Shown piece after piece: positions 4,054-30,673 of a DNA stretch of 64,000 bases. How positions within the stretch are numbered: position 1 is the first letter of the stretch; the number at the start of each line of letters is the position of its first letter. The translations under genes and the position numbers were made by a program. Under the pieces are notes generated by a model. The model made no database searches, was not told where the DNA came from, and worked only from the letters and a program-made list of their open reading frames with translations. Where the stretch lies: assembly GCA_002205965.3 (NCBI GenBank), contig NADL03000765.1, forward strand, positions 310,001 to 374,000, in the 5' to 3' direction. The DNA comes from Kappaphycus alvarezii. Taxonomy: Eukaryota > Rhodophyta > Florideophyceae > Gigartinales > Solieriaceae.

Positions 4054-5510
4054 TGATAGGGGTAAATCGGCGGGGGAAGAGATCCTCAGAACCAATTACC
4101 CTGAGAAGGAGATGTTGCGGGCGACAAAAGCGCTACCGTGGTATTGTCGAACGAACAAAAGGGAATGTATATAGAAGAGAGTTGAGGAAGCTACAAGCAA
4201 GTATAAAAGGGGCAGGGTCTACCACCGACGCTCTGCGACTAGCGTAATGAAAAGTTTTCTTGGGTCTGAAGTTGACTCTCAACATCCTACTACTCGGGAC
4301 TTGGCTTGAAGTTGTCTGCCAACTTGCTTGACCTCTCCATGAGGAAGCAGTTTACTCAGCTTATATAGACTTTTGGCTACCCCTAAAGTCCGAACAAAAC
4401 TACAGAAGATACCAAGAAATGCATAAAAATACTTTGCGTGGACAATATACTCTAAGCAAAAGATACTTAAGAAACTAACAATTAATTTGGTCCTCTTATT
4501 TCCCATTCTCTAAATCAGATCCAAACAACTCCTCTAAAATATCCATGCTGTCCAAGCAGTCCCCACAAATATCTGCGAATGGCTCAGAGCTCTCTATTTC
4601 CCCCTGGGAGATATCTAGACTACTAAAGATATCTCCATCCGGTTCCATCGTGGGCACAACTTGATCCATACTCTCCATTCCAGGCCCCACCAGTCCAACA
4701 CTTTCCATCCCCCTGTTCCCTCATCCTCCTCCTCCTCCTCCTCCTCTTCCCCATCCTCCTCCTCCTCTTCCTCCTCTTCCTCCTCCTCTTCCTCCTCTTC
4801 CTCCTCCTTCTCCCGAGCCTCGTGCACTAGCTCAGGGGCTAACCATTCCTCGAAGGACTCCCCGCTCTCCTCCTCGACCTTCTCCGCCTCTCCCTCACTT
4901 ACCTCCCTCGCTTCTTCTTCTATGAAGAGGCGGCGAACGAACTCGATGATTTGCTTCTTTGTTTGCCGCCGGATGTAGTCGTCGGCATCGGTTGTCCCGT
5001 AGGCGGCGAGACGAAGGCCATTGATGGGACGGGAAGGGCGGTTTTTGGAAATAGGGACAGAGGGGCGAAGTTTGTTCATTTTGATAGACGTTGGGGAACG
5101 GGAGGCAATGTAGGGTGTTTTGGGTGTGTGGGGGGAGAGAGGTGATGAGTAAAATGATCGGGGGCATTTGGAACCTAGAATAAAGGGGTTTAAATAGGCT
5201 CCCGGGGCAGGTTGTATAGATTAGGAATAGGTAAAATAAATCTGCAAGGGATTTTGCAGTAGTGCATTTGCGCCCTTCTTCTCAAAAAAGGCGAATTTGG
5301 AGGAGGAGGTAAGCTAAAAGGGAAAAGGGACTTGATTCGGGGTCGATTCAGAGGGTTAAATACAGTATAAAAATATCTAGATAAAATGGAAGTAAATTTG
5401 GAAATGACGGTGGGAGAAGTTAGGGGCGGGATCGTTGTAGGTTGCTGGATTACATGAAGGGACGACCATTTCCTGTATTAAATGAGGGGAGGACCATTTT
5501 TTGTATTGCA
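4054..5510 (-). repeat. Solo long-type gypsy LTR carrying a U3 gene
   Basis: This is a 1457-bp solo LTR on the minus strand, bounded by ATCTG duplications. Read on the minus strand it begins TGCAATACAAAAAATGG and ends CCCTATCA. It matches the 3' LTR of element 2 (24901-26352) along its length. Its U3 starts with two copies of a 28-bp repeat holding AATGGTCCTCCC; element 2 has three. A protein-coding region follows, then the core promoter, then R-U5. It interrupts the gene at 3440-7085. It is solo because no internal region or second LTR accompanies it, which is the usual product of LTR-LTR recombination. Confidence 0.93.
4496..5079 (-). pseudogene. LTR-encoded acidic protein, copy a (frameshifted)
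   Basis: The ATG at 5079 opens a frame with a conserved N-terminus (NGLRLAAYG, then TDADDYIRRQTKKQIIEFV). A Glu-rich region with more than 20 consecutive Glu codons (GAG/GAA, about 4718-4806) follows. The frame then departs from the family. The family C-terminus is present in another frame (4496-4708: MESMDQVVPTMEPDGDIFS, then DICGDCLDSMDILEELFG), so one frameshift in or just after the trinucleotide tract separates the halves. The Asp/Glu plus Leu/Ile/Phe pattern of the last 15 residues looks like an acidic activation motif, but this is inference. The gene lies wholly in U3, upstream of the LTR core promoter and in the same orientation. The homologue at 28534-29076 shows the two halves belong to one protein. 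Confidence 0.75.
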
Positions 5511-9868: not shown

Positions 9869-10108
9869 TGATGTGCGCAAATTCGCGCACGAAAAAATCT
9901 AGATGAGGACCATGATTGTATACAGTATCGGAATTGGGAAGATATTTTTACAGTTTTTGAATTTGCAAGATATTTTTAATTTGGGTGAGTGTGGCAAATT
10001 CGTCGGCTGATTTTTTCATTTTAGGACACGCTGTCATAGTAGATGTCAGTACAGTTCCAGGTTGTGGGTGATACGACAAGTAGCTCTGAAAGGTCTATAT
10101 AATGGCCA

Positions 10109-10180
10109 CATCAATTCCCACCCCTGGCCGATGGATGGCTGGCATGGGTATGGCACCTAGATATTTACGTTGAGGAAATA
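10109..10180 (+). CDS. LTR mini-ORF, about 23 codons
   Basis: A small frame begins at the ATG in TATAATGGCCACATC and ends at TGA after MATSIPTPGRW...APRYLR. The same frame is open in the other two short LTRs (near 16921 and 18347) with few changes. It occupies the position of the U3 gene of the long LTRs and shares its ATGGCCA start with the copy at 29785-30360. I infer it is a remnant left by deletion of most of that gene. Whether it is translated is unknown. Confidence 0.35.
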
Positions 10181-10260
10181 TCTTCTAATAGTCTCTCTGG
10201 TTCACACGATTCCCGTGAATGCACTTTATGGTTATTATGGTTATTAGTATGTTTTTTTGA

Positions 10261-10290
10261 GACTTTTGGGGTAGCCAAAAGTCTATATAA
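10261..10290 (+). promoter_or_regulatory. LTR core promoter: inverted repeat plus TATA box
   Basis: GACTTTTGG and its reverse complement CCAAAAGTC flank a 5-bp spacer (10261-10283). TATATAA follows directly (10284-10290). The same arrangement occurs in every related LTR here, with small changes, including the long types whose upstream U3 is unrelated. TATA position and conservation suggest the genomic RNA promoter. The inverted repeat could bind a dimeric factor. Confidence 0.65.
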
Positions 10291-10325
10291 GCCGAGTAAA
10301 CTGCTTCCTGTAGTGGAGGTGAAGC

Positions 10326-10384
10326 AAGTTGGCAGACAACTTCAAGCCCAGTCCCAAATAGCTAGGAAGTTGAGAGTCAACTTC
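10326..10384 (+). other. Two conserved hairpins in the LTR R region
   Basis: AAGTTGGCAGACAACTT (10326-10342) and GAAGTTGAGAGTCAACTTC (10366-10384) are inverted repeats with 5- and 3-base loops. Both recur in the other LTRs of the family. They lie about 40-95 bases after the TATA box, so they would be near the 5' end of the transcript. Confidence 0.6.
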
Positions 10385-10601
10385 AGACCCAAGAAGAATT
10401 TATTTTACGCTAGTCGCTAAGCATAGGTTGTAGACCCTGCCCCTTCCATACTTGCTTGTAGCCCATTCAACTTTCTTCCCTATCCACTCCTTTTTGGTTC
10501 GTTTTACTATACCACGGTAGCACTTTTGTCGCTTGCAACACCTCCTTCTTGGGGTAATTGGTTCTGAGGATCTCTTCCCCTGCTGATTTATCCCTAACAT
10601 T

Positions 10602-10617
10602 TGGTACTCTTGTGGAG
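10602..10617 (+). other. Primer-binding site of element 1
   Basis: TGGTACTCTTGTGGAG starts 2 bp after the LTR end and is identical in element 2. TGG pairs with the CCA end of a tRNA. I could not name the tRNA. Confidence 0.75.
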
Positions 10618-10687
10618 GGGGTTGCACCCGAGGTATTCGAGTTGAGCAGTAGTAAGGAACACTTCGGGGGAATTTTTTTCTGTAATC

Positions 10688-13600
10688 ATGGATCTCAAAG
10701 CTGCTCGTATAACGTTCCCAGGGGGCAAGACTGAAGACGTTGAGGAGTTTTCTTTACACATATGTCAACGTTGTGATGCGTGAGAAGAGCGATGAAGAGA
10801 AGGCCGCAAGTATCTTCGCCTATCTTCATGGTGATGCAAAGCACAAATATAAGTCCAAGTTTATCGACGGGTGGTCTCTTAACGGGAATGGGCGTAACTT
10901 CGGTGAGGTATGTGAGTGGCTTGTGAAAGAGTATGCTAAGGAGGTAGAACCAGATGAGATGATTCGTACCGCCATAGAGGCCCGGCTCAACTTCGACGAT
11001 TTGTTAAGCTCATTGGTATACCTGTGTGATCCCTATGAAAAGGCCGGGTTCAACGCCCAAGCCAAGTAAGGAATGCTGCGTAAGGCGGCGACAGGAGATA
11101 AGCGGCTCTGCGATTTCATCCTCATCAAGGTCCCTCACACTTTTAATGAACTGAAGGATACCATGGTAGAATTTGTCAAAAATTCGGAGACGTTTCAGTC
11201 ACTGAGTGAGGCATCGACGGAAAAACTTACATCGATCTCCATTGTACATCCCGAAAAGAACTATTAAAGGCCGGCTACTAGTGCAGCGGCATTATAATCT
11301 GTCAGGAGCGATGTCAAAAACTTGGAAGAAAGGTTGGAAACACGATTCGATAATCGACTTGACATGATAACCTCGCAGTGGGAAAGCCTTACTCTTACCA
11401 TTAAGAAGAACCAGTCTGGGGTTCCTAAGGCCGCAGAAGTCTGTTCTTACTGTCACAAGCCTGGACACTTTGCAAACAGGTGTCCTGATAATCCACACAG
11501 AAACACTCGTTGTGGAAAGTGCGGACGTTACAGGCATCATGAAAGTAACTGCTGGTCTAAAGACAACAGAAGAGAAAATTTATCGGATGCGAGGAGTGAG
11601 TCAGGGCCAGAGATGAAAATCTTACCAAACAGAAAGGATGAAAGGTTGACGGATGCCGGTAATGTATCCATCATTCAAGAAATTAGTCAAGTCAAAGTTA
11701 CAAAAAGGGATGGGGAAGGGAACATTTTATCGAAAAAAACTAGTCTAAATTATGGAATGCTGGAGCACATCCCAGCACCCGTACCTCCTCGAACCAAGAG
11801 GGCTGATCAAGTTGTTCCAGGAGTGGGAGTCACTCCGGCCAAGAAGACGAAAAAGAGTAAGAAAGTTAAGAGTATCTCTAAAGACGTACTAGAGTATGTG
11901 AAGAGGTACAATTTGGTGGCTGAGCTTGCATCGGCCCCAACTGGGATAACGTTTGGTCAACTTTTGAGGGGCGACGCAGAGGATGCGAGAAAAGAACTCA
12001 AAAAAATTATCAGGTCTAATAAGTCCGCTAAGGGTAAGAAACTGTTTCTTCAATCGGCCTCGACAGCACCAAGACGTCTTAAGCTGGTACCAGTCAAAGT
12101 ATTGGGTATGAAAACCCAAGCTCTCTTCGATTCGGGTGCTGTTCCAAACCTCATTTCAGAAACTTTGGGTGACAGATCTAGGTCTCGAAATTATTCCAAC
12201 GACTCGAAAAATAACTGTAGCGGATGGAACCGTCTCAAAATGCATGGGCACTGTTGACAAGGTTTCCGTGTTCTTTGGGGACTCTAAAGTTGATGTAGAC
12301 TTTCTTGTCATGCCGGATCTCCCTTTCGATGCAATCATTGGCTGCCCCACAATGGAAAGACTAGGAACATGCATTGACTTGGGCAACCAAATCGTTTCAG
12401 TTAATCTTGACGGCAGAACCGTGAAGATGCCCCTGGATTTCGACAAAAGCACGCATCCTGAAGATTTAAAAGAATCGGACAGTGAAAATTTCACTTCTAG
12501 CTATGAAAGCGAAGATTCGGAACCAACTAACATTTTCGGAAGTGGAAAAGGGTACCCCCGAGGGGTAATGAACATGGCATGGGACGATTATGATTCTGGG
12601 TTTGAAACAGATGACGACTGGAATTCTAGGATAAGTTTGAAACCCGAATGTGTTTCTTTTTGCGATGATATCGAATCAAAGGAGAGAATTCGGAGCATGA
12701 AAGTAGATTACCTTTGCAAAGAAAATAAGAATACGTCGAATTCCATATATGAAGATGTTAGCACGACGGAAGAGGTCCTTCAAAATATTGAGGTTGAGGA
12801 TCAAGAAGAAAAAGGGCGCCAAATGGCAGAAATCCAAGGAAAAGTGCAGCACCTTCCCGCGCCCGCCTCACTGAAAATATCCGACATGTTAACATCTTCC
12901 GAAGTAATTGCATGGAGCGTTTCAGATTTAAGACAAGCAAGTGTACCAGTTACTCACTCGTTCGACCTTACCGACACTCAACCGATTTACCACAAGCCTA
13001 GACGTCAACCGCCAAAATATGACCAATTTATCTCAGAAAATGTTACAAGTATGCTGAAAATGATATTATTCGACCAGTTTCATCCCCATGGTCGTTTCCA
13101 GTTGTGGTCGCACCAAAGAAGGATGGAAAGCTGCGTTTTTGCGTCGATTACCGACAACTGAACCAGAGAATGATACCCGATCGATTTCCGATTCCGAACA
13201 TGGAGGAGATCCTCGAGGACCTGAAGGACGGGAGATATTTCACCTCAATTGACCTTTACACTGGCTATTGGCAGATTCCATTGGATGAAAAATGTAAGGA
13301 AAAAAAACCTTTACCAGCAAAGCCGGTACGTTCAGGTTCGAAGTGATGCCTTTTGGTCTCATGAATGCACCAGCTACATTCCAAAGAATGATGAACGAGG
13401 TTTTGAAAGGACTTCCATTCGCAAGAGTCTATATCGATGATGTCGTCATATTCTCAGAAACATTGGATCAGCACATCTCGCACGTCAAGACAGTTGTGGA
13501 GAGGATATCGGAGTATAGCTTGAAAATTAAGTTGAGCAAATGCTTCTTTGCGAAAACTTCTATCCAATTACTCGGTCATATCGTCGACCAAGAGGGAATT

Positions 13601-16600
13601 AGAGTGGATCCAGAGAAAACGAAAAAAATAAAGTTGGCACCAAGGCCCGCTTCAAAGACGGAGGTCCGAAGCTTCTTAGGACTGGCCTCATATTACAGAA
13701 GATTTATCAAAGATTTCGCCAAGACTGCAGCACCGTTACATGCCAGCACTACGAAGAACGGAAAATTTTACTGGAACAAGGAAATGGAAACTGCATTTCA
13801 GGAGCTTAAAGATAAGCTATGTGTCCCCCCAGTTCTCATGTACCCAGATTTCAAGAGACCATTCGTTGTGGAGACAGATGCCTCAGAACGGTCTTTGGGT
13901 GCCGTTTTGTCCCAAAAAGATGAAAACGGAAGACTACACCCTGTTCAATTCGCAAGCCGAACTCTGAATGACGCGGAAAAGAGATACTCAGTCTGCGAGA
14001 AAGAAGCGCTAGCTGTCGTCTTCGCGCTGAAAAAGTTTCGCGTATACCTTTTATCACTCGAGAAATTTGTCTTGATAACTGATCACCAGGCACTTAAAAC
14101 AGCATTCCAAAAGAAGGATGTACATCACCGCTTGGCCCGATGGCTCGACATTTTCGCAGAATATCGGTTTGAAATTGTGTATAGACCCGGACGCAATAAT
14201 CAGCCTGCCGATTACCTATCCCGCTTGAGGGACGCACTGATTCCAAATGAAAAAGCTTCGGAGGACATCGTCGGAGTCGCCGAGTTGCAGTTGCCGAACG
14301 ATAACGAGTACGAAGCTAATATTCACGGACTGATCAAATTCCTCGATGGACTAGAAATGAGAAAGGTTGATCTTGAACACCGAAATTGGGTACGCAGGAA
14401 TCAAAAGGCTTTTACATTGTGGAATGGGAAACTCTTCCGGCACACTAAAGCCGGTCCCCGACTAGTGGCCCCTTTGAAAGAAAGAATGAAGATCTTGAGG
14501 ACTTTCCATGATGAGCTAGGGCATTGGGATCTCGAAACAACCAAAAAATTCGTAACTGAGAGATTCTGGTGGCCCGGTATCCATAAGGACGTCTATAATT
14601 CGTGAAAAGCTGCGACAACTGCCAAAAATTCACTCCAATACGGAAGTATAAGACAACTCTAAGTTTTCCAGTTTCCGGTCTCTTTGAAACCTTCTCAATT
14701 GACTTCGCGGGCCCGTTCAAGGAAACTTCTTCCGGAAACAAATATCTCCTTATAGGGGTGGAACATCTTACTGGATGGCCAATAGCAGTTGCAGTCGAGG
14801 AGGCAAATGCTGAGGTGGTACTGAGATTCATCGAAAAAGAAATAATTGAACCGTTTGGTCTTCCAAAAAGGATCATCTCGGATAACGCCCTTTGTTTTAC
14901 TGCAACTTCACTGCTTCGTTTTTTGGAAGAGAAAGGGATTCAGCTGAAGACCGTTCTCGCATACGCTCCTATGTCCAACGGGAAAGCGGAGAGGATGGTT
15001 GGAACCATCAAACGAGCAATATCGAAAACTATGTTGGAGAATGAAATCCAGTGGGAAGATGCCTTACCAAAAGTGTTATACGGCTACCGTCGAAGAAGAG
15101 GAAGAAATGGACGCTCACCATTCGAGCTAATGTACGGAAGGGCTCCTAGAATGTTACAGAGAGACATGGAAACAAATATTATCGATGAAGAGAGTAGGGA
15201 AGTTGAACTACTGGCCACCGAAGGCTGGAGATCACACCGCGCGCTAACACAGACAAGAAATAAGGATGCAGAACCTGCAGTCAGAACCTTTTCAGTTGGC
15301 TCTAAAGTACTTGTAGTACATGGAAAAGCAATGCAGCAGGCTGTGAAGTGGCCGGCCTTCCAAACCAAGTACTCGAACCCTTGCATCGTCACGGAGGAAA
15401 GACACCCGCACTATCAGCTCTGTTCAAGCTCAGGGAAGAGATCAAGGAGGGCCATCCATGCACGTCGTCTGGTCCCTTACCATCAGAGGCCTGAAGAATT
15501 CCTTCTCACACAGGACTATGCGCAACCACGGGGCATACTCATCTTTAACTATAGAATGATTCCTATGGGAGGAAAAAGGGCCTGGGAATGGATCATCTCG
15601 GTTACGCGGGACTACTACGAACTCCACGTAATCATCCATTTCTACATTAATATATGCCTATGTTTTCGTACGTTGAACGGACCATTGCTACCTGAAGAAG
15701 ATTTCCGACTATTAATAAGAGTTCTATTTTCATTCCAAAACGGAAGGTTCACGGAAGCAGGTCCAGAGTTTGTGGAGGTAATATATCATTACTCTATAGG
15801 AAGATATGGAATGGTAGCTGCTGGAGACTTGTCGCAAACGTATCTGAATATTATCCGTCCAATTTACGTATTTCTCAAGAACAACCAAGACGTGCGACTG
15901 AGAGGTTACGCCTTACCCCCGGATATGGAATACAGGCTGGTCCCGTATCCTCTATGGGAACCTTACGTTTCTCCGCCACAAATTGGGAACGTTGGAGGCG
16001 GCGAGGATCCTCCTGAAGCAGTGATGATGACCAGAGGAGGACCTTCAGGAGACAACAACCCGCCCAGAAGAGGTTCCGGTCGTCCCCCGAGAGGACCTCG
16101 TGCAGGTCCCAGTACGTCAGGAGCTGGTCGCGGCCATTCATCGGGACCGTCCACCACAACTTCATCTCTAGCTCTCCTTCACAACCATGCACAGCATACA
16201 GTCGGAAGAAGAAGATTATCTTTTTGGCTGCGCAATATCTCCGAGGATGCGAACGATGCGCAGGTCATTTCTTATTTCATGATAAGCATCTGTTTATGTT
16301 TTAGGGCGCTACATGGACCGCACTTATCTTACGAAGATTCGTTCTTGATGATGCGCGTCTTCTTTTCTTATCGACATCCATTCCTCCGGCATCTTCCAGA
16401 AGAGTTTGCATATCACATATATTTTTTCACTCTTGGAAGATTCGGAAGAGTCACGGAAGAAGAATGTATTCAACCCCACCTCGATGTGATCAAACCAATA
16501 TATGAGGCTATGCTACAAAGTGAGGTACCAGTAATGCGAACCTACTTTTTAGAGCATCATATTGGTAATCAGTTGCATCCGTACCCGTTTGAGAGACCAT

Positions 16601-16674
16601 ACATTTTATCAATAAGACAGCGAACACTAACGAAGAGAAGAAGAGCAGTGAACGAGTCGGGACGTTCGTCTTGA
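10688..16674 (+). pseudogene. gag-pol: Gag-pol polyprotein of gypsy element 1, interrupted
   Basis: It starts at the ATG of MDLKAARITF. Domains in order are: Gag with two CX2CX4HX4C zinc knuckles (about 11440-11555); a Lys-rich linker; aspartic protease with FDSGA (about 12126); reverse transcriptase with DYRQLN and YIDD (13431-13442); RNase H with ETDASERSLGAV (about 13870); an integrase HHCC zinc domain; and a DDE core. In the last frame (from 14602) the catalytic residues are D34, D94 and E130, a DD35E spacing. A GPY/F-like segment and an extension of about 400 residues follow. Compared with element 2 there are breaks near 10750 (extra T), 11067 and 11265 (stops), 11296 (stop), 12167 (extra G), 13058, 13310 and 14599 (single-base losses). 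Most breaks are single-base indels. One continuous reading frame seems to be the ancestral state, with no separate pro or env frame. Confidence 0.9.
15583..16605 (+). other. Duplicated domain of unknown function after the integrase
   Basis: After the GPY/F end (RRLVPYH, about 15475) the frame continues with two related blocks of about 125 residues (15583-15969 and 16216-16605). Both share ICLCFRxLxGPxL, an ED pair, RVxFS, PEF/EEF, GRxGxV, a PIY and a PYPxxxPY end. I estimate about 35 percent identity by eye. The linker between them (15970-16215) is rich in Gly, Pro, Arg and Ser (for example PRRGSGRPPRGPRAG). No chromodomain is present. I do not recognise the domain. The internal duplication and its retention in both elements suggest a structural or binding role. 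Confidence 0.7.
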
Positions 16675-16685
16675 GCGAGAGGGCG
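16675..16685 (+). other. Polypurine tract of element 1
   Basis: GCGAGAGGGCG directly precedes the 3' LTR and overlaps the end of pol by a few bases. It is short and interrupted by C, so it is a weak tract. Confidence 0.55.
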
Positions 16686-17392
16686 TGATGTGCGCAAATT
16701 TCGCACACGAAAAAATCTAGATGAGGACCATGATTGTATACAGTATCGGAATTGGGAAGATATTTTTACAGTTTTTGAATTTGCAAGATATTTTTAATTT
16801 GGGTGAGTGTGGCAAATTCGTCGGTTGATTTTTTCATTTTAGGACACGCTGTCATAGTAGATGTCAGTACAGTTCCAGGTTGTGGGTGATACGACAAGTA
16901 GCTCTGAAAGGTCTATATAATGGCCACATCAATTCCCACCCCTGGCCGATGGATGGCTGGCATGGGTATGGCACCTAGATATTTACCTTGAGGAAATATC
17001 TTCTAATAGTCTCTCTGGTTCACACGATTACCGTGAATACTTTTTGGTTATTAGTATGTTTTTTGAGACTTTTGGGGTAGCCAAAAGTCTAAATAAGCCG
17101 AGTAAACTGCTTCCTGTAGTGGAGGTGAAGCAAGTTGGCAGACAACTTCAAGCCAAGTCCCGAGTAGTAGGAAGTTGAGAGTCAACTTCAGACCCAAGAA
17201 AATTTTTTTACGCTAGTCGCAGAGCGTGGTAGACCCTGCCCCTTTTATACTTGCTTGTAGCTCAACTCTCTTCTATATACACTCCCTTTTGTTCGTTCAA
17301 CAATACCACGGGGCACTTTTGTCGCTTGCAACACCTCCTTCTTGGGGTAATTGGTTCTGAGGATCTCTTCCCCTGCTGATTTATCCCTAACA
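16686..17392 (+). repeat. 3' LTR of element 1 (short type)
   Basis: It runs from TGATGTGCGC to CCCTAACA and is slightly shorter than the 5' LTR, mostly by small indels. The core promoter inverted repeat and both R hairpins are intact. Confidence 0.93.
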
Positions 17393-18111: not shown

Positions 18112-18833
18112 TGATGTGCGCAAATTCGCACACGAAAAAAATCTAGATGAGGACCATGATTGTATACAGTATCGGAATTGTGAAGATATTTTTACAGTTT
18201 TTGAATTTGCAAGATATTTTTAATTTGGGTGAGTGTGGCAAATTGATCGGTTGATTTTTTCATTTTAGGACACGCTGTCATAGTAGATGTCAGTGTACAG
18301 TTCCAAGTTGTGGGTGATACTACGAGTGACTCTGAAAGGTCTATATAATGGTCACATCAATTCCCACCCCTGGCCGATGGGTGGCTGGCATGGGTTTGGC
18401 ACCTAGATATTTACCTTAAGGAAATATCTCCTAATAGTCTCTCTGGTTCACACGATTACCGTGAATACATTTTATGGTTATTAGTATGTTTGTTTTGGGA
18501 CTTTTGGGGGTAGCCAAAAGTCTATATAAGCTGAGTAAACTGCTTCCTCATGGAGAGGTCAAGCAAGTTGGCAGACAACTTCAAGCCAAGTCCCGAGTAG
18601 TAGGAAGTAGAGAGTCAACTTCAGACCCAAGAAAACTTTTTCTTACGCTAGTCGCAGAGCGTCGGTGGTAGACCCTGCCCCTTTTATACTTGCTTTTAGG
18701 TTTCTCAACTCTCTTCTATATAAACTCGCTTTTGTTCGTTCAACAATACCACGGCACTTTTGTCGCTCGCAACACCTCCTTCTCAGGGTAATTGGTTCTG
18801 AGGATCTCTTCCCCCGCCGATTTACCCCTATCA
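18112..18833 (+). repeat. 5' LTR of element 2 (short type)
   Basis: It runs from TGATGTGCGC to CCCTATCA, 722 bp. It has the same U3 as element 1, with a mini-ORF starting ATGGTCACATC at about 18347. R-U5 is closer to the long-type LTRs than to element 1, for example in the CTCATGGAGAGG segment and the CCCTATCA end. Confidence 0.92.
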
Positions 18834-18835
18834 TT

Positions 18836-18851
18836 TGGTACTCTTGTGGAG
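18836..18851 (+). other. Primer-binding site of element 2
   Basis: TGGTACTCTTGTGGAG begins 2 bp after the LTR, identical to element 1. Confidence 0.75.
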
Positions 18852-18921
18852 GGGGTTGCACCCGAGGTATTCGAGTTGAGCAGTAGTAAGGAACACTTCG
18901 GGGGATTTCTTTTCTGTAATC

Positions 18922-21900
18922 ATGGATCTCAACGCTGCTCGTATAACGTTCACAGGGGCAAGACTGAAGACGTTGAGGAGTTTCTTTACACATATGTCAA
19001 CGTTGTGATGCGAGAGAAGGGCGATGAAGAGAAGGCCGCAAGTATCTTCGCCTATCTTCATGGTGACGCAAAGCACAAATATAAGTCCAAGTTTATCGAC
19101 GGGTGGTCTCTTAACGGGAATGGGCGTAACTTCGGTGAGGTATGTGAGTGGCTTGTGAAAGAGTATGCTAAGGAGGTAGAACCAGATGAGATGATTCGTA
19201 CCGCCATAGAGGCCCGGCTCAACTTCGACGATTTGTTAAGCTCATTGGTGTACTTGTGTGATCTTTATGAAAAGGCTGGGTTCAACGCCCAAGCCAAGTA
19301 CGGAATGCTGCGTAAGGCGGCTATGGGGGATAAGCGGCTCTCCGATTTCCTCCTCATCAAGGGCCCTCACACTTTTGATGAACTGAAGGGTACCATAGTA
19401 GAATTTGTCAAAAATTCGGAGACGTTTCAGTCACTGAGTGAGGTACCGAGGGAAACCCGCACATCGATGTCTATCGTACATCCTGAAAAGAATTATCAAA
19501 GGCCGGCTACTAGTGCAGCGGCATTAGAATCTGTCAGGAGCGATGTCAAAAACTTGGAAGAAAGGTTGGAAACCCGATTCGATAATCGACTTGACATGAT
19601 AACCTCGCAGTTGGAAAGCCTTACTCTTACCATTAAGAAGAACCAGTCTGGGGCCCCTAAGGCCGCAGAAGTCTGTTCTTACTGTCACAAGCCTGGACAC
19701 TTTGCAAACAGGTGTCCTGATAATCCACATAGAAACACTCGTTGTGCAAAGTGCGGTCGATATGGGCATCATGAAAGTAACTGCTGGTCTAAAGACAACA
19801 GAAGAGCAAATTTATCGGAAGAGGAGTGAGTCAGGACCAGAGGTGAAAATCTTACAAAATAGAAGGGATCAAAGGTTGACGGATGCCGGTAACGTATCCA
19901 TCGCTGAAGAGATTAGTCAAGTCAATGTGACAAAAAGGGATGGGGAAGGGAACATTTTATCGAAGAAACCTAGGCTAGAGTATGGAATGCTGGAGCATAT
20001 CCCAGCACCTGTACCTCCTCGAACCAAGAGGTCTGATCAAGTTGTTCCAGGAGTGGGAGTCACTCCGGCCAAGAAGACGAAAAAGAGTAAGAAAGTTAAG
20101 AGTATCTCTAAGGACGTACTAGAGTATGTGAAGAGGTACAATTTGGTGGCTGAGCTTGCATCGGCCCCAACTGGGATAACGTTTGGTCAACTTTTGAGGG
20201 GCGACGCAGAGGATGCGAGAAAAGAACTCAAAAAAATTATCAGGTCTAATAAGTCCGCTAAGGGTAAGAAACTGTTTCTTCAATCGGCCTCGACAGCACC
20301 AAGACGTCTTAAGCTGGTACCAGTCAAAGTATTGGGTATGAAAACCCAAGCTCTCTTCGATTCGGGTGCTGTTCCAAACCTCATTTCAGAAACTTTGGTG
20401 ACAGATCTAGGTCTCGAAATTACTCCAACGACTCGAAAAATAACTGTAGCGGATGGAACCGTCTCAAAATGCATGGGCACTGTTGACAAGGTTTCCGTGT
20501 TCTTTGGGGACTCTAAAGTTGATGTAGACTTTCTTGTCATGCCGGATCTCCCTTTCGATGCAATCATTGGCTGCCCACATGGAAAGACTAGGACATGCAT
20601 TGACTTGGGCAACCAAATGGTTTCAGTTAATATTGACGGCAGAACCGTGAAGATGCCCCTGGATTTCGACAAAAGCACGCATCCTGAAGATTTAAAAGAA
20701 ACGGACAGTGAAGATTTCACTTCTAGCTATGACAGCGAAGATTCGGAACCAACTAACACTTTCGGAAGTGGAAAAGGGTACCCTCGGGGTTAATGAACAT
20801 GGCATGGGACGATTATGATTCCGGGTTTGAAACAGATGACGACTGGGATTCTAGGATAAGTTTGAAACCCGAATGTGTTTCTTTTTGCGATGATATCGAA
20901 TCAAAGGACAGAATTCGGAGCATGAAAGAAGATTACCTTTGCAAAGAAAATAAGAATACGTCGAATTCCATATATGAAGATGTGAGCACGACGGAAGAGG
21001 TCCTTCAAAATATTGAGGTTGAGGATCAAGAAGAAAAAGGGCGCCAAATGGCAGAAATCCAAGGAAAAGTGCAGCACCTTCCCGCCCCCGCCTCACTGAA
21101 AATATCCGACATGTTAACATCTTCCGAAGTAATTGCATGGAGCGTTTCAGATTTAAGACAAGCAAGTGTACCGGTTACTCACTCGTTCGAACTTACCGAC
21201 ACTCAACCGATTTACCACAAGCCTAGACGTCAACCGCCAAAATATGACCAATTTATCTCAGAAAATGTTACAAGTATGCTGAAAAATGATATTATTCGAC
21301 CAGTTTCATCCCCATGGTCGTTTCCAGTTGTGGTCGCACCAAAGAAGGATGGAAAGCTGCGTTTTTGCGTCGATTACCGACAACTGAACCAGAGAATGAT
21401 ACCCGATCGATTTCCGATTCCGAACATGGAGGAGATCCTCGAGGACCTGAAGGACGGGAGATATTTCACCTCAATTGACCTTTACACTGGCTATTGGCAG
21501 ATTCCATTGGATGAAAAATGTAAGGAAAAAACAACCTTTACCAGCAAAGCCGGTACGTTCAGGTTCGAAGTGATGCCTTTTGGTCTCATGAATGCACCAG
21601 CTACATTCCAAAGAATGATGAACGAGGTTTTGAAAGGACTTCCATTCGCAAGAGTCTATATCGATGATGTCGTCATATTCTCAGAAACATTGGATCAGCA
21701 CATCTCGCACGTCAAGACAGTTGTGGAGAGGATATCGGAGTATAGCTTGAAAATTAAGTTGAGCAAATGCTTCTTTGCGAAAACTTCTATCCAATTACTC
21801 GGTCATATCGTCGACCAAGAGGGAATTAGAGTGGATCCAGAGAAAACGAAAAAAATAAAGTTGGCACCAAGGCCCGCTTCAAAGACGGAGGTCCGAAGCT

Positions 21901-24829
21901 TCTTAGGACTGGCCTCATATTACAGAAGATTTATCAAAGATTTCGCCAAGACTGCAGCACCGTTACATGCCAGCACTACGAAGAACGGAAAATTTTACTG
22001 GAACAAGGAAATGGAAACTGCATTTCAGGAGCTTAAAGATAAGCTATGTGTCCCCCCAGTTCTCATGTACCCAGATTTCAAGAGACCATTCGTTGTGGAG
22101 ACAGATGCCTCAGAACGGTCTTTGGGTGCCGTTTTGTCCCAAAAAGATGAAAACGGAAGACTACACCCTGTTCAATTCGCAAGCCGAACTCTGAATGACG
22201 CGGAAAAGAGATACTCAGTCTGCGAGAAAGAAGCGCTAGCTGTCGTCTTCGCGCTGAAAAAGTTTCGCGTATACCTTTTATCACTCGAGAAATTTGTCTT
22301 GATAACTGATCACCAGGCACTTAAAACAGCATTCCAAAAGAAGGATGTACATCACCGCTTGGCCCGATGGCTCGACATTTTCGCAGAATATCGGTTTGAA
22401 ATTGTGTATAGACCCGGACGCAATAATCAGCCTGCCGATTACCTATCCCGCTTGAGGGACGCACTGATTCCAAATGAAAAAGCTTCGGAGGACATCGTCG
22501 GAGTCGCCGAGTTGCAGTTGCCGAACGATAACGAGTACGAAGCTAATATTCACGGACTGATCAAATTCCTCGATGGACTAGAAATGAGAAAGGTTGATCT
22601 TGAACACCGAAATTGGGTACGCAGGAATCAAAAGGCTTTTACATTGTGGAATGGGAAACTTTCCGGCACACTAAAGCCGGTCCCCGACTAGTGGCCCCTT
22701 TGAAAGAAAGAATGAAGATCTTGAGGACTTTCCATGATGAGCTAGGGCATTGGGATCTCGAAACAACCAAAAATTCGTAACTGAGAGATTCTGGTGGCCC
22801 GGTATCCATAAGGACGTCTATAACTTCGTGAAAAGCTGCGACAACTGCCAAAAATTCACTCCAATACGGAAGTATAAGACAACTCTAAGTTTTCCAGTTT
22901 CCGGTCTCTTTGAAACCTTCTCAATTGACTTCGCGGGCCCGTTCAAGGAAACTTCTTCCGGAAACAAATATCTCCTTATAGGGGTGGAACATCTTACTGG
23001 ATGGCCAATAGCAGTTGCAGTCGAGGAGGCAAATGCTGAGGTGGTACTGAGATTCATCGAAAAAGAAATAATTGAACCGTTTGGTCTTCCAAAAAGGATC
23101 ATCTCGGATAACGCCCTTTGTTTTACTGCAACTTCACTGCTTCGTTTTTGGAAGAGAAAGGGATTCAGCTGAAGACCGTTCTCGCATACGCTCCTATGTC
23201 CAACGGGAAAGCGGAGAGGATGGTTGGAACCATCAAACGAGCAATATCGAAAACTATGTTGGAGAATGAAATCCAGTGGGAAGATGCCTTACCAAAAGTG
23301 TTATACGGCTACCGTCGAAGAAGAGGAAGAAATGGACGCTCACCATTCGAGCTAATGTACGGAAGGGCTCCTAGAATGTTACAGAGAGACATGGAAACAA
23401 ATATTATCGATGAAGAGAGTAGGGAAGTTGAACTACTGGCCACCGAAGGCTGGAGATCACACCGCGCGCTAACACAGACAAGAAATAAGGATGCAGAACC
23501 TGCAGTCAGAACCTTTTCAGTTGGCTCTAAAGTACTTGTAGTACATGGAAAAGCAATGCAGCAGGCTGTGAAGTGGCCGGCCTTCCAAACCAAGTACTCG
23601 AACCCTTGCATCGTCACGGAGGAAAGACACCCGCACTATCAGCTCTGTTCAAGCTCAGGGAAGAGATCAAGGAGGGCCATCCATGCACGTCGTCTGGTCC
23701 CTTACCATCAGAGGCCTGAAGAATTCCTTCTCACACAGGACTATGCGCAACCACGGGGCATACTCATCTTTAACTATAGAATGATTCCTATGGGAGGAAA
23801 AAGGGCCTGGGAATGGATCATCTCGGTTACGCGGGACTACTACGAACTCCACGTAATCATCCATTTCTACATTAATATATGCCTATGTTTTCGTACGTTG
23901 AACGGACCATTGCTACCTGAAGAAGATTTCCGACTATTAATAAGAGTTCTATTTTCATTCCAAAACGGAAGGTTCACGGAAGCAGGTCCAGAGTTTGTGG
24001 AGGTAATATATCATTACTCTATAGGAAGATATGGAATGGTAGCTGCTGGAGACTTGTCGCAAACGTATCTGAATATTATCCGTCCAATTTACGTATTTCT
24101 CAAGAACAACCAAGACGTGCGACTGAGAGGTTACGCCTTACCCCCGGATATGGAATACAGGCTGGTCCCGTATCCTCTATGGGAACCTTACGTTTCTCCG
24201 CCACAAATTGGGAACGTTGGAGGCGGCGAGGATCCTCCTGAAGCAGTGATGATGACCAGAGGAGGACCTTCAGGAGACAACAACCCGCCCAGAAGAGGTT
24301 CCGGTCGTCCCCCGAGAGGACCTCGTGCAGGTCCCAGTACGTCAGGAGCTGGTCGCGGCCATTCATCGGGACCGTCCACCACAACTTCATCTCTAGCTCT
24401 TCACAACCATGCACAGCATACAGTCGGAAGAAGAAGATTATCTTTTTGGCTGCGCAATATCTCCGAGGATGCGAACGATGCGCAGGTCATTTCATGATAA
24501 GCATCTGTTTATGTTTTAGGGCGCTACATGGACCGCACTTATCTTACGAAGATTCGTTCTTGATGATGCGCGTCTTCTTTTCTTATCGACATCCATTCCT
24601 CCGGCATCTTCCAGAAGAGTTTGCATATCACATATATTTTTTCACTCTTGGAAGATTCGGAAGAGTCACGGAAGAAGAATGTATTCAACCCCACCTCGAT
24701 GTGATCAAACCAATATATGAGGCTATGCTACAAAGTGAGGTACCAGTAATGCGAACCTACTTTTTAGAGCATCATATTGGTAATCAGTTGCATCCGTACC
24801 CGTTTGAGAGACCATACATTTATCAATAA
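18922..24829 (+). pseudogene. gag-pol: Gag-pol polyprotein of gypsy element 2, interrupted
   Basis: It has the same domain order as element 1: Gag with two zinc knuckles (about 19675-19785), protease FDSGA (about 20356), RT with YIDD (21659-21670), RNase H, integrase and the duplicated C-terminal domain. The RT-RNase H part is intact over 632 codons (20793-22691). Breaks are near 18950 (one G lost), 19815 (two bases lost), 20790 (base lost, then TAATGA), 22659, 22770 and 23146 (single bases lost in T or A runs), 24491 (7 bp lost in the second copy of the duplicated domain) and 24820. Most are single-base losses at sites where element 1 is intact, and vice versa, so the two copies do not share their lesions. 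Pol is nearly identical to element 1, while the first 1 kb of gag is more diverged. Confidence 0.9.
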
Positions 24830-24882
24830 GACAGCGAACACTAACGGAAGCAGAAGAAGAGCAGTGACGACCCGGGACGTTC

Positions 24883-24900
24883 GCCTTGAGAAAGGGGGCG
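24883..24900 (+). other. Polypurine tract of element 2
   Basis: GAGAAAGGGGGCG precedes the long LTR and is a better tract than that of element 1. The 55 bp before it differ from element 1, consistent with a switch to a different parent element near 24840. Confidence 0.6.
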
Positions 24901-24902
24901 TG

Positions 24903-24990
24903 TAATACAAAAAATGGTCCTCCCCTCATTTAATACAGGAAATGGTCCTCCCTTCACGTAATACAGGAAATGGTCCTCCCCTCGTGTAAT
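24903..24990 (+). repeat. Three 28-bp direct repeats at the start of U3
   Basis: Each unit contains TAATACA(G/A)(G/A)AAATGGTCCTCCC. Three copies are present here and two in the solo LTR at 4054-5510. Their place at the outer end of U3 is typical of retroviral-style enhancer repeats, but that function is inferred. Confidence 0.75.
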
Positions 24991-25356
24991 CCAGCAACCT
25001 ACAACGATCCCGCCCCTAACTTCTCCAACCGTCATTTCCAAATTTACTTCCATTTTATCTAGATATTTTTATACTGTATTTAACCCTCTGAATCGACCCC
25101 GAATCAAGTCCCTTTTCCCTTTTAGCTTACCTCCTCCTCCAAATTCGCCTTTTTTGAGAAGAAGGGCGCAAATGCACTATTGCAAAATCCCTTGCAGATT
25201 TATTTTACCTATTCCTAATCTATAGAACCTGCCCCGGGAGCCTATTTAAACCCCTTTATTCTAAGTTCCAAATGCCCCCGATCATTTTACTCATCACCCC
25301 TCTCCCCCCACACACCCAAACACCCACATTGCCTCCGTTCCCCAACTTCTATCACA

Positions 25357-25911
25357 ATGAGCAACCTTCGCCCCTCTGTCCCTATTTCCAAAAACCGCCC
25401 TTCCCGTTCCATCAATGGCCTTCGTCTCGCCGCCTACGGGCCAACCGATGCCGACGACTACATCCGGCGGCAAACAAAGAAGCAAATCATCGAGTTCGTC
25501 GCCGCCTCTTCATAGAAGAAGAAGCGAGGGAGGTAAGTCCGGGAGAGGCTGAGAAGGTCGAGGAGGAGAGCGGGGAGTCCTTCGAGGAATGGTTAGCCCC
25601 TGAGCTAGTGTACGAGGCTGGAGAAGGAGGAGAGAGAGGAAGGAGGAGGAGGAGGATGGGAAGAGGAGGAGGAGGAGGAGGAGGATGAGGAACAGGGGGC
25701 ATGGAAAGTGTTGGACGGTGGGGCCTGGAATAGAGAGTATGGATCAAGTTGTGCCCACGATGGAACCGGATGGAGATATCTTTAGTAGTCTAGATATCTC
25801 CCAGGGGGAAATAGAGATTGTGAGCCATTCGCAGATATTTGTGGGGACTGCTTGGACAGCATGGATATTTTAGAGGAGTTGTTTGGATCTGATTTAGAGA
25901 ATGGGAAATAA
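25357..25911 (+). pseudogene. LTR-encoded acidic protein, copy b (broken)
   Basis: The ATG at 25357 starts MSNLRPSVPISKN. The conserved TDADDYIRRQTKKQIIEFV block follows, and the frame then breaks at about 25500, where one base is missing relative to copy a. The rest is spread over other frames: EEEAREVSPGEAEKVEEESGE, a GAGGA-rich acidic tract (about 25640-25690), then SMDQVVPTMEPDGDIFS and SMDILEELFGSDLEN before TAA at 25909. A further lesion lies near 25730-25840. A TATTTAAA box lies about 110 bp upstream. It is close to copy a at the DNA level. It sits in the 3' LTR of an element whose 5' LTR lacks the gene. Confidence 0.75.
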
Positions 25912-26352
25912 GAGGACCAAATTAATTGTTAGTTTCTTAAGTATCTTTGCTTAGAGTATATTGTCCACACAAAGTATTTTTATGCATTTCTTGGTATCTT
26001 CTGTAGTTTTGTCCGGACTTTAGGGGTAGCCAAAAGTCTATATAAGCTGAGTAAACTGCTTCCTCATGGAGAGGTCAAGCAAGTTGGCAGACAACTTCAA
26101 GCCAAGTCCCGAGTAGTAGGAAGTTGAGAGTCAACTTCAGACCCAAGAAAACTTTTTTTTACGCTAGTCGCAGAGCGTCGGTGGTAGACCCTGCCCCTTT
26201 TATACTTGCTTTTAGGTTTCTCAACTCTCTTCTATATACACTCCCTTTTGTTCGTTCAACAATACTACAGTAGCACTTTTGTCGCTCGCAACACCTCCTT
26301 CTCAGGGTAATTGGTTCTGAAGATCTCTTCCCCCGCCGATTTACCCCTATCA

Positions 26353-28533: not shown

Positions 28534-29076
28534 ATAAACAGCCTTCACTCCTCCGCCCCAATCACCATAACCAGCCCTTTTCGCCCCTTAAACGGACTTG
28601 CGCTCGCTGTGTATGTCCCGACGGACGCAAACGACAAAATGCGACGCCAGACGAAGAAGAAGATCATAGAGTTCTTCCGCGAACTCTTCGTCGAAGGTGA
28701 GGCAGAAGAATTCAGCAAGTGGGAGACGGAGAAGAAAGAGGATGAGCTCGGCAAGTCGTTTGAGGCGTGGGTGGTCCTGAATTTAGTTTACGAGGGTGAC
28801 GAGGACGATGATGACATGGACGAAGATGGGGATGACGAAGAAGTTGGGGAGGAGAGTAAAGAATATGAGGCAGAAGAAGCCAGTGAGGTGGGGCGTGGGC
28901 TGAATAGGATGGACCAAGTGGATCCGGCACCAGAACCTGATGGGGGCATTTTTAGTGTCTTAGGTATCTCCCAAGAGGGAATAGAGAATCGTAGGCCGTT
29001 CGTGGATATTTGTGGGGACTGTTTTGATAGAATGGATATTTTGCATGATATGTTTAAATCTAGCATGGAGAATTAG
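28534..29076 (+). pseudogene. LTR-encoded acidic protein, copy c (uninterrupted, start codon ATA)
   Basis: This is the only copy whose N- and C-terminal halves are in one open frame of 180 codons. The family's start codon is ATA here (28534), so translation would need GTG (28609) or an internal ATG. Features in order are NGLALAVYVPTDANDKMRRQ, a helix-prone KKKIIEFFRELF segment, an Asp/Glu-rich middle of about 60 residues, MDQVDPAPEPDGGIFS, then DICGDCFDRMDILHDMF at the C-terminus. Two Cys spaced CGDC are kept in copies a and c; copy d keeps only the second (YVDC), and copy b is disrupted nearby. The surrounding U3 is hardly alignable with the other LTRs, while the protein is. That argues the gene was under selection. 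The acidic-hydrophobic C-terminus suggests transcription activation, which is unproven. Confidence 0.65.
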
Positions 29077-29330
29077 ATATAGCATGGAGAATTAGATCTA
29101 GCATGGGGAATTGAAATGGTAACGACTAGACTCATTTCCTTGTCTCTTTAGTATCTTTTACGTATCTTTTAATATCTTCAAAGTATCTTTTATTGGCACT
29201 GAACTCTCGCGCCCACAGAAATTATTTCAATGGGCGTCATGGTATTTAGCATAGTTTTTCCAAAGCTCTAGGAGTTGGAAAAGGTCTTAAAAGCTGATTA
29301 AACTGCTCCTTTCAGGAATGGGAAGGGAAG

Positions 29331-30673
29331 TGATAGGGATAAATCGTTGGGAGAGAAGATACTCAGAACCAACTACCCCAAGAAGGAGGTGTTGCGAGCG
29401 ACAAAAGTGCTACAGTGGTATAGTTGAACGAACAAAAAGGAATGTTTATGGAAGAGAGTTGAGAGAGCTACATGCAAATATGGAAGGGGCAGGGTCTACG
29501 ACGGATGCTCTGGAACCAGCTTAGGAAAAATGTTTCTTGGGTCTGAAGTTGACTCTCAACTCCCTACTGCTCGGAGCTTGACTTGAAGTTGTCTGCCAAC
29601 TTGCTTGACCTACACAAGAGGAAGCAGTTTACTCAGCTTATATAGACTTTCTGGCTAACCCAAAAGTCTCACAAAAGCATACTAAGAACCATAAAATGCA
29701 CCAAATGGAATCTTGTGAACGAGAAAGACTAACAACAGATACTATCAGGATAAATATCTAGATTCTTTCCTTAATATCTTACTCCTATATATCAGAGCCA
29801 AAAAGTTCCCCCAAAATATTCATCCCACCCAGGCAGTCCACATAAATATCCGCGATCCGCCTAGAATTCTCCGTTAACTCCTGCGAAATATCTAGATCAC
29901 TGAAGAAGCCCCCATACGGTTCCAGATTCCGGACCACCTGGTCCATACTTTCTGGCTCCTTTCCCACTAATCCAGCACTTTCCATGTTCCCCTCCCCCTA
30001 ATCCTTCTCATACTCCTCTTCACTCCTCTCTTCATCTTCGTCAGACGAGTCAGAGATCAAAATTACTCCCTCAGTCTCCCCTTCATTCTCCATGGGAGCC
30101 CCCCCACCGTTATACTTTAGTGGCTCCCACGGATCCACGCAGTCCTCCTCTTCTTCCTCCTCTTCCTCCGCTTCCTTCTCTGCATCTTCTGCCTGCTCTA
30201 AGCTGTTACGGCGGACCCAGTCCCGGACGCGTTCCCGGTCCAACCTTCTATAGTAATCATCGTAGTCAGTTGGACCATTTTCCATCAGTGCCAAAGCGTT
30301 GAGTGGACAACGGCCTCGGGATGACTTGGTGATGGTGAGGGGAGGGCGGAGGTTGGCCATGTTAAGGGCCAGAAGAAGGGGTGGGCTGATGAGGTAGTTG
30401 ATGGCAGGGGATTTCCTCAACGACGACGATTCCGAACTTTAAATACTGTGACGTCTTCGAAAAGTGAGACGACCTTGGACATGTACAGTAACGGCACCTA
30501 TTAATGACACAGGGTCTTAAAATAAAAAATCAACCCATGATTTTGTGACACTCATCCAAATTAAAAATATCTTGCAAATTCAGAAACTGTAAAAATATCT
30601 TCCAAATTCCGATACTGTATACAATTTTGGTCCTCTTCTACATTTTTTTTCGAGTGCGAATTTGCGCACATCA
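29331..30673 (-). repeat. Solo LTR with short-type U3 start and full U3 gene
   Basis: This is a 1343-bp solo LTR on the minus strand, flanked by GGAAG duplications (29326-29330 and 30674-30678). Read on the minus strand it starts TGATGTGCGC like the short LTRs and follows them for about 200 bp. The gene comes next (30360 to 29785). It then rejoins the short LTRs at TAGATATTTA...GTTCACA(C/A)GATTCC and the core promoter. It is therefore the gene-bearing counterpart of the short LTRs. Confidence 0.93.
29785..30360 (-). pseudogene. LTR-encoded acidic protein, copy d (one in-frame TAG)
   Basis: From the ATG at 30360 (MANLRPPLTITKSSRGR) the frame runs 192 codons to the stop at 29785, with a single TAG at 29998-30000. 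Before it come TDYDDYYRRLDRERVRDWVRR, a Glu-run, and an acidic ISDSSDEDEE segment. After it come MESMDQ-like PESMDQVVRNLEPYGGFFS and the C-terminal CLGGMNILGELFGSDI. The ISDSSDEDEE stretch resembles a SUMO-interacting or CK2 site, by pattern only. The TAG could be a lesion or a read-through site. A TATTTAA (about 30438) lies about 75 bp upstream as a possible promoter. The protein differs considerably from copies a and b but keeps the ends, which supports a real gene family. Confidence 0.75.

What the first reader, a model, noticed from the sequence alone, without database searches (positions are those of the whole stretch)
28534..30360. An LTR-encoded gene: acidic, activator-like protein in the U3 of a gypsy family
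Seen: four LTRs carry a related ORF of about 180-195 codons in U3 (4496-5079, 25357-25911, 28534-29076, 29785-30360), in LTR orientation and upstream of the LTR core promoter. The ends of the protein (TD-D-Y-RR near the N-terminus; MDQV-x-EPxG-x-FS and C-x2-MxIL-x2-xF near the C-terminus) are kept while the U3 DNA around them has diverged beyond alignment. Known: retroviral LTR genes are rare (MMTV sag is the classic case), and acidic-hydrophobic C-termini are typical of transcription activators. Inferred: a self-encoded regulator of the element, perhaps acting on its own LTR.
Basis: partly seen in the sequence, partly recalled or inferred. Interest (0 to 1): 0.9.

Follow-up and report, generated by a model that had tools for sequence, protein, structure and literature searches.

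The report
A conserved gene inside retrotransposon LTRs
In what is very probably a red alga, many terminal repeats of a jumping-gene family carry a small gene of their own that natural selection has kept working, so even a leftover single repeat can be a gene; its acidic protein probably controls the element, but its function is untested.

Summary
The LTR ORF is a real protein-coding gene, though none of the four window copies is intact. In the window's own 336-Mb genome, 14 of 30 fetched loci of the LTR2 type (one is the window copy) are open from ATG to stop. Element L044 has matching target duplications, two LTRs differing at 2 of 1442 sites, and an open ORF in both. dN/dS is 0.12-0.32 in the 27 comparisons of diverged subfamilies, with bootstrap limits below 1; closer pairs are less clear (0.21-0.97). 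The signal is tied to this frame (5 pairs). The ORF lies between two TATA-type boxes, so a solo LTR could be a whole gene. The protein has no convincing Pfam or PDB relative: a basic N-terminal block, an acidic tract and a conserved acidic-hydrophobic C-terminus. LTRs lacking the ORF are also numerous, so the gene is dispensable in cis. I favour a trans-acting regulator of the element, probably a transcription activator (about 0.45); coding status is about 0.95. No transcript or binding evidence exists here. The host is very probably a red alga.

The parts
4054..5510 (-). LTR1, solo LTR of the F1 type (TG..CA, TSD cagat)
4496..5079 (-). LTR1 ORF copy, ATG at 5079, frame changes in the acidic tract
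24901..26352 (+). LTR2, long ORF-bearing 3' LTR (F1 type) of hybrid element B
24901..24994 (+). 28-bp direct repeats, 3.4 copies, at the start of LTR2
25061..25071 (+). AGATATTTTTA element shared by U3 families that otherwise hardly align
25243..25250 (+). TATTTAAA box upstream of the ORF (putative ORF promoter P1)
25357..25911 (+). LTR2 ORF copy, ATG kept, frame changes after about codon 48 and further on
26039..26046 (+). TATATAAG core box downstream of the ORF (putative genomic-RNA promoter P2)
28534..29076 (+). LTR3 ORF copy (F3 type), open for 180 codons but ATA in place of ATG
29077..29330 (+). LTR3 sequence downstream of its ORF, interrupted by LTR4; resumes after 30673
29331..30673 (-). 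LTR4, solo LTR of the F4 type, TSD cttcc, inserted in LTR3
29785..30360 (-). LTR4 ORF copy, ATG kept, one in-frame TAA
30562..30619 (-). 28-bp direct repeat pair in LTR4, holding two AGATATTTTTA elements
9869..17392 (+). element A: short ORF-less LTRs (9869-10599, 16686-17392) around a gypsy internal region, TSD gggtg
18112..26352 (+). element B: short ORF-less 5' LTR, internal region 97% identical to A, long ORF-bearing 3' LTR, no matching TSD (probable recombinant)

Best explanation
The U3 part of the LTRs of a Ty3/gypsy group carries a complete accessory gene of about 180-200 codons. Shown: it is protein-coding and has been under purifying selection in the lineages compared; it is present and open in both LTRs of a recent insertion with matching target duplications; in F1 it sits between an upstream TATTTAAA box and the LTR core TATATAAG box; a numerous LTR subfamily lacks it. 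Inferred: it is transcribed from its own promoter (P1), most simply from the 3' LTR or from a solo LTR, where P1, the ORF and the LTR's own 3' end would make a short mRNA. Its product acts in trans as the element's regulator: the conserved basic N-terminal block would bind LTR DNA or a host DNA-binding protein, the conserved acidic-hydrophobic C-terminus would recruit the transcription machinery, and the target would be the U3 sequence around the AGATATTTTTA element (and the 28-bp repeats where present). ORF-less elements would use the product made by others. My odds: coding gene 0.95; trans-acting regulator of the element in the broad sense 0.6; transcription activator in particular 0.45 (the figure entered below).
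For: Twenty distinct ORFs of 177-204 aa, open from ATG to stop, in the fetched loci (its pattern missed L037); 14 of 30 fetched F1 loci, the window copy being one of the 30. In two of the 14 (L011, L023) part of the middle is read in another frame. NG86 dN/dS on 11 of 24 sequences, 55 pairs: 21 pairs of F1-like or F2 against F3 give 0.12-0.32 and 6 pairs of F2 against F1-like give 0.17-0.21, all with upper bootstrap limits of at most 0.52. Differences at codon positions 1/2/3 for F1 vs F3 L059: 34/22/74. In 5 pairs the two other sense frames and two antisense frames give ratios of about 0.8 to 2.9; the third antisense frame, which shares third positions, gives about 0.3-0.4. L044: TSD gttcc, LTRs differing at 2 of 1442 sites, both ORFs open. 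LTR pairs in L041 (tandem array) and L046 (internal deletion) show 0 substitutions and both ORFs open. P1 box kept in F1, F2 and F4 and upstream of I14. AGATATTTTTA: 10 matches in the window against 0.14 expected, all ten inside these LTRs. C-terminal tile passes the rule of PMC10550315 (passages) in 19 of 20 open ORFs; 0 of 3457 tiles of nine other window ORFs pass. ORF-less LTRs numerous.
Against: No transcript or binding data. No convincing Pfam or PDB relative, so no DNA-binding fold is shown; the single-sequence model is poor (mean pLDDT 40.5). The activation-domain rule is failed by I18 and by the C-termini of F3 (two tested) and F4 (one tested), and 35-91% of whole-protein shuffles of four proteins hold a passing tile. 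28-bp repeats were not found upstream of F2, I14 and F3, one locus each. The F3 flank has no TATTTAAA box at the P1 place. AGATATTTTTA between F1 and F4 alone has a BLAST E of only 0.39. Close pairs give dN/dS of 0.21-0.97 with wide limits, and pairs within F3 give 0.44-0.67. None of 8 F4 loci is open. Abundance of ORF-less elements can also mean the gene is optional. Internal ORFs of L041 and L044 are in pieces, so autonomy of the ORF-bearing elements is not shown.
Confidence: 0.45

Rival explanations
1. An anti-silencing or chromatin factor: the acidic protein opens or demethylates LTR chromatin rather than activating a promoter directly, working like the VANC proteins of Arabidopsis VANDAL transposons.
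For: Acidic tract; U3 families with their own tandem repeats; VANC targets often form tandem repeats that vary between related TEs (PMC5735166, abstract and section list seen).
Against: No related Pfam family found; repeats not found in the F2, I14 and F3 flanks examined.
Confidence: 0.2
2. An accessory protein of the replication cycle (particle assembly, nuclear import, integration targeting) rather than of transcription.
For: Purifying selection; basic RRQTKK stretch in the N-terminal block.
Against: A gene with its own upstream TATA-type box inside U3 is an odd place for a structural protein (inference); ORF-less LTR pairs are numerous, though supply in trans would allow this too.
Confidence: 0.2
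3. A former host gene, or a suppressor of host defence, captured into an LTR and kept for a benefit unrelated to the element's own transcription.
For: No similarity to known protein families in the libraries searched; present in some LTR families, absent in others.
Against: No host copy was recognised, but the protein search scored only 150 of 8120 candidates and their surroundings were mostly not read.
Confidence: 0.1
4. A non-coding stretch that is open by chance or conserved as DNA.
For: All four window copies are broken; 48 of the 141 longer matches listed hold stops (counted by eye).
Against: Low, frame-tied dN/dS between diverged subfamilies; open ORFs in both LTRs of a recent insertion.
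Confidence: 0.03

Closest known systems
MMTV sag (superantigen gene in the 3' LTR)
   Same: A gene lying in U3 (recalled). MMTV strains are said to be >95% similar except in the sag region, the most variable part (PMC10223558, passage); here U3 with the ORF varies while the internal regions compared stay about 94-99% alike.
   Different: Different element family and host; no relation to known families was found in the libraries searched, and sag itself was not compared.
Spumavirus tas/bel-1 transactivator with internal promoter
   Same: A small regulator near the 3' end with a second promoter (figure-legend passages of PMC7828637; overlap with the LTR recalled).
   Different: tas lies mainly upstream of the 3' LTR (recalled); here the ORF and its TATA-type box lie wholly inside the LTR, so solo LTRs keep them.
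VANC anti-silencing proteins of Arabidopsis VANDAL elements
   Same: TE-encoded proteins acting on sequence-specific targets that often form tandem repeats (PMC5735166, abstract).
   Different: VANDALs are DNA transposons (recalled); no sequence was compared directly; anti-silencing is untested here.
crapaud LTR subfamilies of Podospora
   Same: Subfamilies that differ mainly in U3 before the TATA box, and full copies whose two LTRs belong to different subfamilies (PMC10787394, section 8 and passages).
   Different: The variable region there is under 200 bp, and the passages seen mention ORFs only for gag and pol.

Membership tests
Ty3/gypsy (Metaviridae) LTR retrotransposon | Domain order protease, RT-RNase H, integrase | tested here: met
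   Sub-threshold protease match, then RVT_1/RNase H and H2C2, then rve, in consecutive ORFs 12136-16674
Ty3/gypsy (Metaviridae) LTR retrotransposon | Paired LTRs TG..CA with short TSD | tested here: met
   5-bp TSDs in L040, L043, L044 and in element A
LTR-encoded accessory gene (MMTV sag-like position) | Open ORF wholly within both LTRs of a full element | tested here: met
   L044: 180 and 193 aa, TSD gttcc; also L043, where the middle of one ORF is read in another frame
LTR-encoded accessory gene (MMTV sag-like position) | Transcribed and translated | not testable with these tools
   no RNA or protein data; purifying selection is indirect support
Acidic transcription activation domain (VP16 H1/CITED2 rule, PMC10550315) | 39-aa tile with charge <= -9, WFYL >= 7 and the diagonal condition, at the C-terminus | tested here: inconclusive
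   19 of 20 open ORFs pass; I18, two F3 and one F4 C-termini do not; shuffles often pass
Sequence-specific DNA-binding protein | Known DNA-binding domain | tested here: not met
   no convincing Pfam or PDB match; the weak hit to 2k9i (E 0.52; ribbon-helix-helix label recalled) was not among the N-block hits
VANC anti-silencing family | Sequence relationship | tested here: inconclusive
   no convincing Pfam family; no VANC sequence was compared directly
VANC anti-silencing family | Loss of methylation at target TEs | not testable with these tools
   needs bisulfite data

The most novel reading that the evidence does not exclude
The LTR itself is a self-contained control unit: promoter, gene for the element's own transcription activator or anti-silencer, and its target sites, all within U3. 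Every insertion adds two gene copies, solo LTRs remain working regulator genes, and LTRs that dropped the gene but kept the cis elements spread as regulatory parasites of the others.
Probability: 0.3. Interest if true: 0.9.

Novelty: new variant of a known kind. Interest (0 to 1): 0.74.

Why it matters
Genes wholly inside an LTR are hardly known outside MMTV (recalled), and the paper searches made here listed no report of one in a Ty3/gypsy element (open-licence library only). If the product regulates its own LTR, retrotransposon control in this host works through a gene that solo-LTR formation does not delete, and the ORF-less LTRs would be a natural case of cheating on a shared regulator. 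The large number of candidate copies in one genome (unscored first-look counts of 8120 and 2958) makes this testable by expression and reporter assays.

Tried and rejected
Chance ORF or DNA-level conservation: rejected by frame-tied dN/dS. Known domain: Pfam, PHROGs and PDB searches gave only acidic-tract or sub-threshold matches; a lead to 2k9i (E 0.52) was dropped because the N-block profile did not list it. Fold: one AlphaFold2 job on the window LTR3 protein gave mean pLDDT 40.5, too low for a fold search, and none was run. Relatives in viral contigs: 457 stretches matched a pattern, none confirmed. Rfam at gathering threshold: 0 matches in the window; ARAGORN: 0 tRNA genes. The 28-bp repeat as a universal target site: dropped, since it was not found upstream of F2, I14 and F3. 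A fungal host, my first guess, was dropped: Chitin_synth_1 gave 0 matches (controls silent too, so weak), chlorophyll a/b-binding gave 22 and phycobilisome linker 17. A spliced exon: F1 has a GTAAGT inside the ORF, but low dN/dS continues in the C block (F1 vs F3). Paper searches for ORFs inside Ty3/gypsy LTRs listed no such report; two searches were malformed and not answered. The script stopped with an error after one locus; the question was redone.

Full report
Observation. None is an intact gene in the window: LTR1 changes frame in the acidic tract, LTR2 after about codon 48 and again further on, LTR3 has ATA in place of the ATG, LTR4 has one TAA. LTR1 (4054-5510) and LTR4 (29331-30673) are solo LTRs with TSDs cagat and cttcc; LTR4 lies inside LTR3. 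LTR2 is the 3' LTR of element B, whose 5' LTR is a short ORF-less LTR. B has no matching TSD, and its internal region is 97% identical to that of element A, which has short LTRs on both sides and TSD gggtg. A tandemly repeated hybrid of the same polarity lies on contig C566 with different flanks and no matching TSD. These are probably recombinants; crapaud of Podospora also has full copies with LTRs of two subfamilies (PMC10787394, section 8 read).

Names. F1 is the LTR1/LTR2 type; F2 (I13, I15, I17) has a different N block; F3 is the LTR3 type; F4 is the LTR4 type. I14, I16, I18 and I19 are F1-like in the N block. These labels are mine.

Genome copies. The window lies in a 336-Mb assembly of 884 contigs. 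A DNA search with the LTR2 copy gave 40 scored matches at 93-100% identity out of 2003 unscored first-look candidates. Thirty were fetched with flanks, the window copy among them; 14 of the 30 hold an ORF of at least 170 aa from ATG. These 30 are not independent, since several are the two LTRs of one element, and in L011 and L023 part of the middle is read in another frame. Of eight loci fetched for the LTR4 type, the window copy among them, none holds such an ORF. A protein search with the LTR3 copy scored 150 of 8120 candidates. Of the 141 longer matches listed, 93 show no in-frame stop (counted by eye; the search favours good copies). Of the first 19 rows, the nearest to LTR3 and including it, 3 show none. 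ORF-bearing LTR pairs lie about 7.5 kb apart in most cases, 6.0 kb on C575.

Insertions. L044 is the clearest: TSD gttcc on both sides, LTRs differing at 2 of 1442 aligned sites (plus length changes), ORFs of 180 and 193 aa open in the two LTRs. L043 (TSD ccccc, 8 of 1446 sites) has two open ORFs, one with an out-of-frame middle. L040 (TSD gatgt, 9 of 1437) has the ORF in both LTRs, broken in both. The LTR pairs in L041 and L046 differ at 0 of 1505 and 0 of 1457 sites and all four ORFs are open, but L041 is part of a tandem LTR array and L046 lacks about 1.6 kb of the internal region, so these two are not clean single insertions.

Selection. One search found 20 distinct open ORFs (its pattern missed L037, open). 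Seven of these, three F3-type copies (L059, L060, window LTR3) and the window LTR4 copy, 11 of the 24 sequences, were compared pairwise without the acidic tract, 55 pairs. F1-like or F2 against F3: 21 pairs, 0.12-0.32. F2 against F1-like: 6 pairs, 0.17-0.21. All 27 have upper bootstrap limits of at most 0.52. Among the six F1-like sequences (15 pairs) the ratio is 0.21-0.97 with wide limits; within F3 it is 0.44-0.67, as expected for decay after insertion. With the LTR4 copy (10 pairs) dS could not be computed in 5 and the rest give 0.16-0.50. Synonymous distances above 1 are near saturation, so ratios are rough. In 5 pairs the other two sense frames and two antisense frames give ratios of about 0.8-2.9, and the antisense frame that shares third positions about 0.3-0.4. 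The two halves have separate histories: I13 and I14 share a C block (dS 0) but differ in the N block (dS 1.85, dN 0.22), so the gene has been reshuffled between lineages while kept in frame.

Anatomy. In F1 the order is: LTR start with 28-bp direct repeats, AGATATTTTTA about 295 bp before the ATG, TATTTAAA about 114 bp before it, ORF, TATATAAG about 130 bp after the stop, LTR end, then a TTTGGTACTC primer-site candidate. Period-28 repeats were reported in 27 of 28 starts classed as F1 and 5 of 8 classed as F4, one of the eight (L051) being a short LTR. The repeat finder reported none in the three ORF-less window LTRs, but these keep an F4-like pair at lag 28 (0 of 2000 shuffles in each). No such repeat was found in 400-720 bp upstream of F2, I14 and F3, one locus each. 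AGATATTTTTA occurs 10 times in the window against 0.14 expected, always in these LTRs; related copies inflate that count, and the F1-F4 match alone has E 0.39. The F3 flank has no TATTTAAA at the P1 place.

ORF-less LTRs. The short LTR matches the F4 start at about 87%, has a TATA-type box at the P1 place and F4-like sequence after the ORF place, with only some tens of bases in place of the ORF (by eye); I read it as a deletion of the gene. A search across that place gave 2958 unscored candidates; the 40 scored, the window copy included, match at 96-100% without the ORF, with pairs about 6.8 kb apart on C719, C822, C850, C831, C806 and C631. This suggests a fairly recent spread, but their ages were not measured. 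The gene is therefore not needed in cis.

Protein. A conserved N-terminal block (PTDADDY-RRQTKK-IIEFVR) is followed by a variable acidic tract and a conserved C-terminus (EPDG-IFS-LDIS...DICGDCLDSMDILEELFGSDLE). Pfam, PHROGs and PDB searches gave nothing convincing. The C-terminal tile (-12, 7) is close to VP16 H1 (-13, 7) under the published rule (PMC10550315, passages) and passes in 19 of 20 open ORFs, but I18, two F3 proteins and one F4 protein fail there, and 35-91% of shuffles of four proteins hold a passing tile, so the rule is not specific for a protein this acidic.

Host. Chlorophyll a/b-binding (22 matches) and phycobilisome linker (17 matches on many contigs) point to a red alga. The assembly size fits what I recall of Kappaphycus alvarezii; no call shows the species.

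Mechanism and limits. Purifying selection, dispensability in cis, an own TATA-type box and the acidic-hydrophobic C-terminus together favour a trans-acting regulator of the element, most likely a transcription activator; anti-silencing and replication-cycle roles remain open. Transcription, translation, binding and autonomy were not shown. Internal ORFs of L041 and L044 are in pieces, which may be real or assembly error.

Noticed in passing
window 18112-26352; L047, L050: Hybrid elements with a short ORF-less 5' LTR and a long ORF-bearing 3' LTR at two unrelated places, the one on C566 in a tandem array with about 10.5-kb spacing.
   Followed up: partly
window 5424-6334 (+): Broken ORFs, the second with a DUF7869 match (E 8.1e-25), beside solo LTR1.
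   Followed up: no
window 48964-50049 (-): Tc1/mariner-type transposase in two ORFs (DDE_3, HTH_Tnp_Tc3).
   Followed up: no
window 44151-47585 (-): Pieces that look by eye like a Ty1/copia polyprotein; one has a sub-threshold gag_pre-integrase match.
   Followed up: no
L041 and L044: LTR ORF open in both LTRs while the internal ORFs are in several pieces: assembly indels or elements moved in trans.
   Followed up: no
L049 (C520): Nearly perfect 4.4-kb tandem units, each holding an LTR4-type LTR and a piece of an F1-like N-terminus.
   Followed up: no
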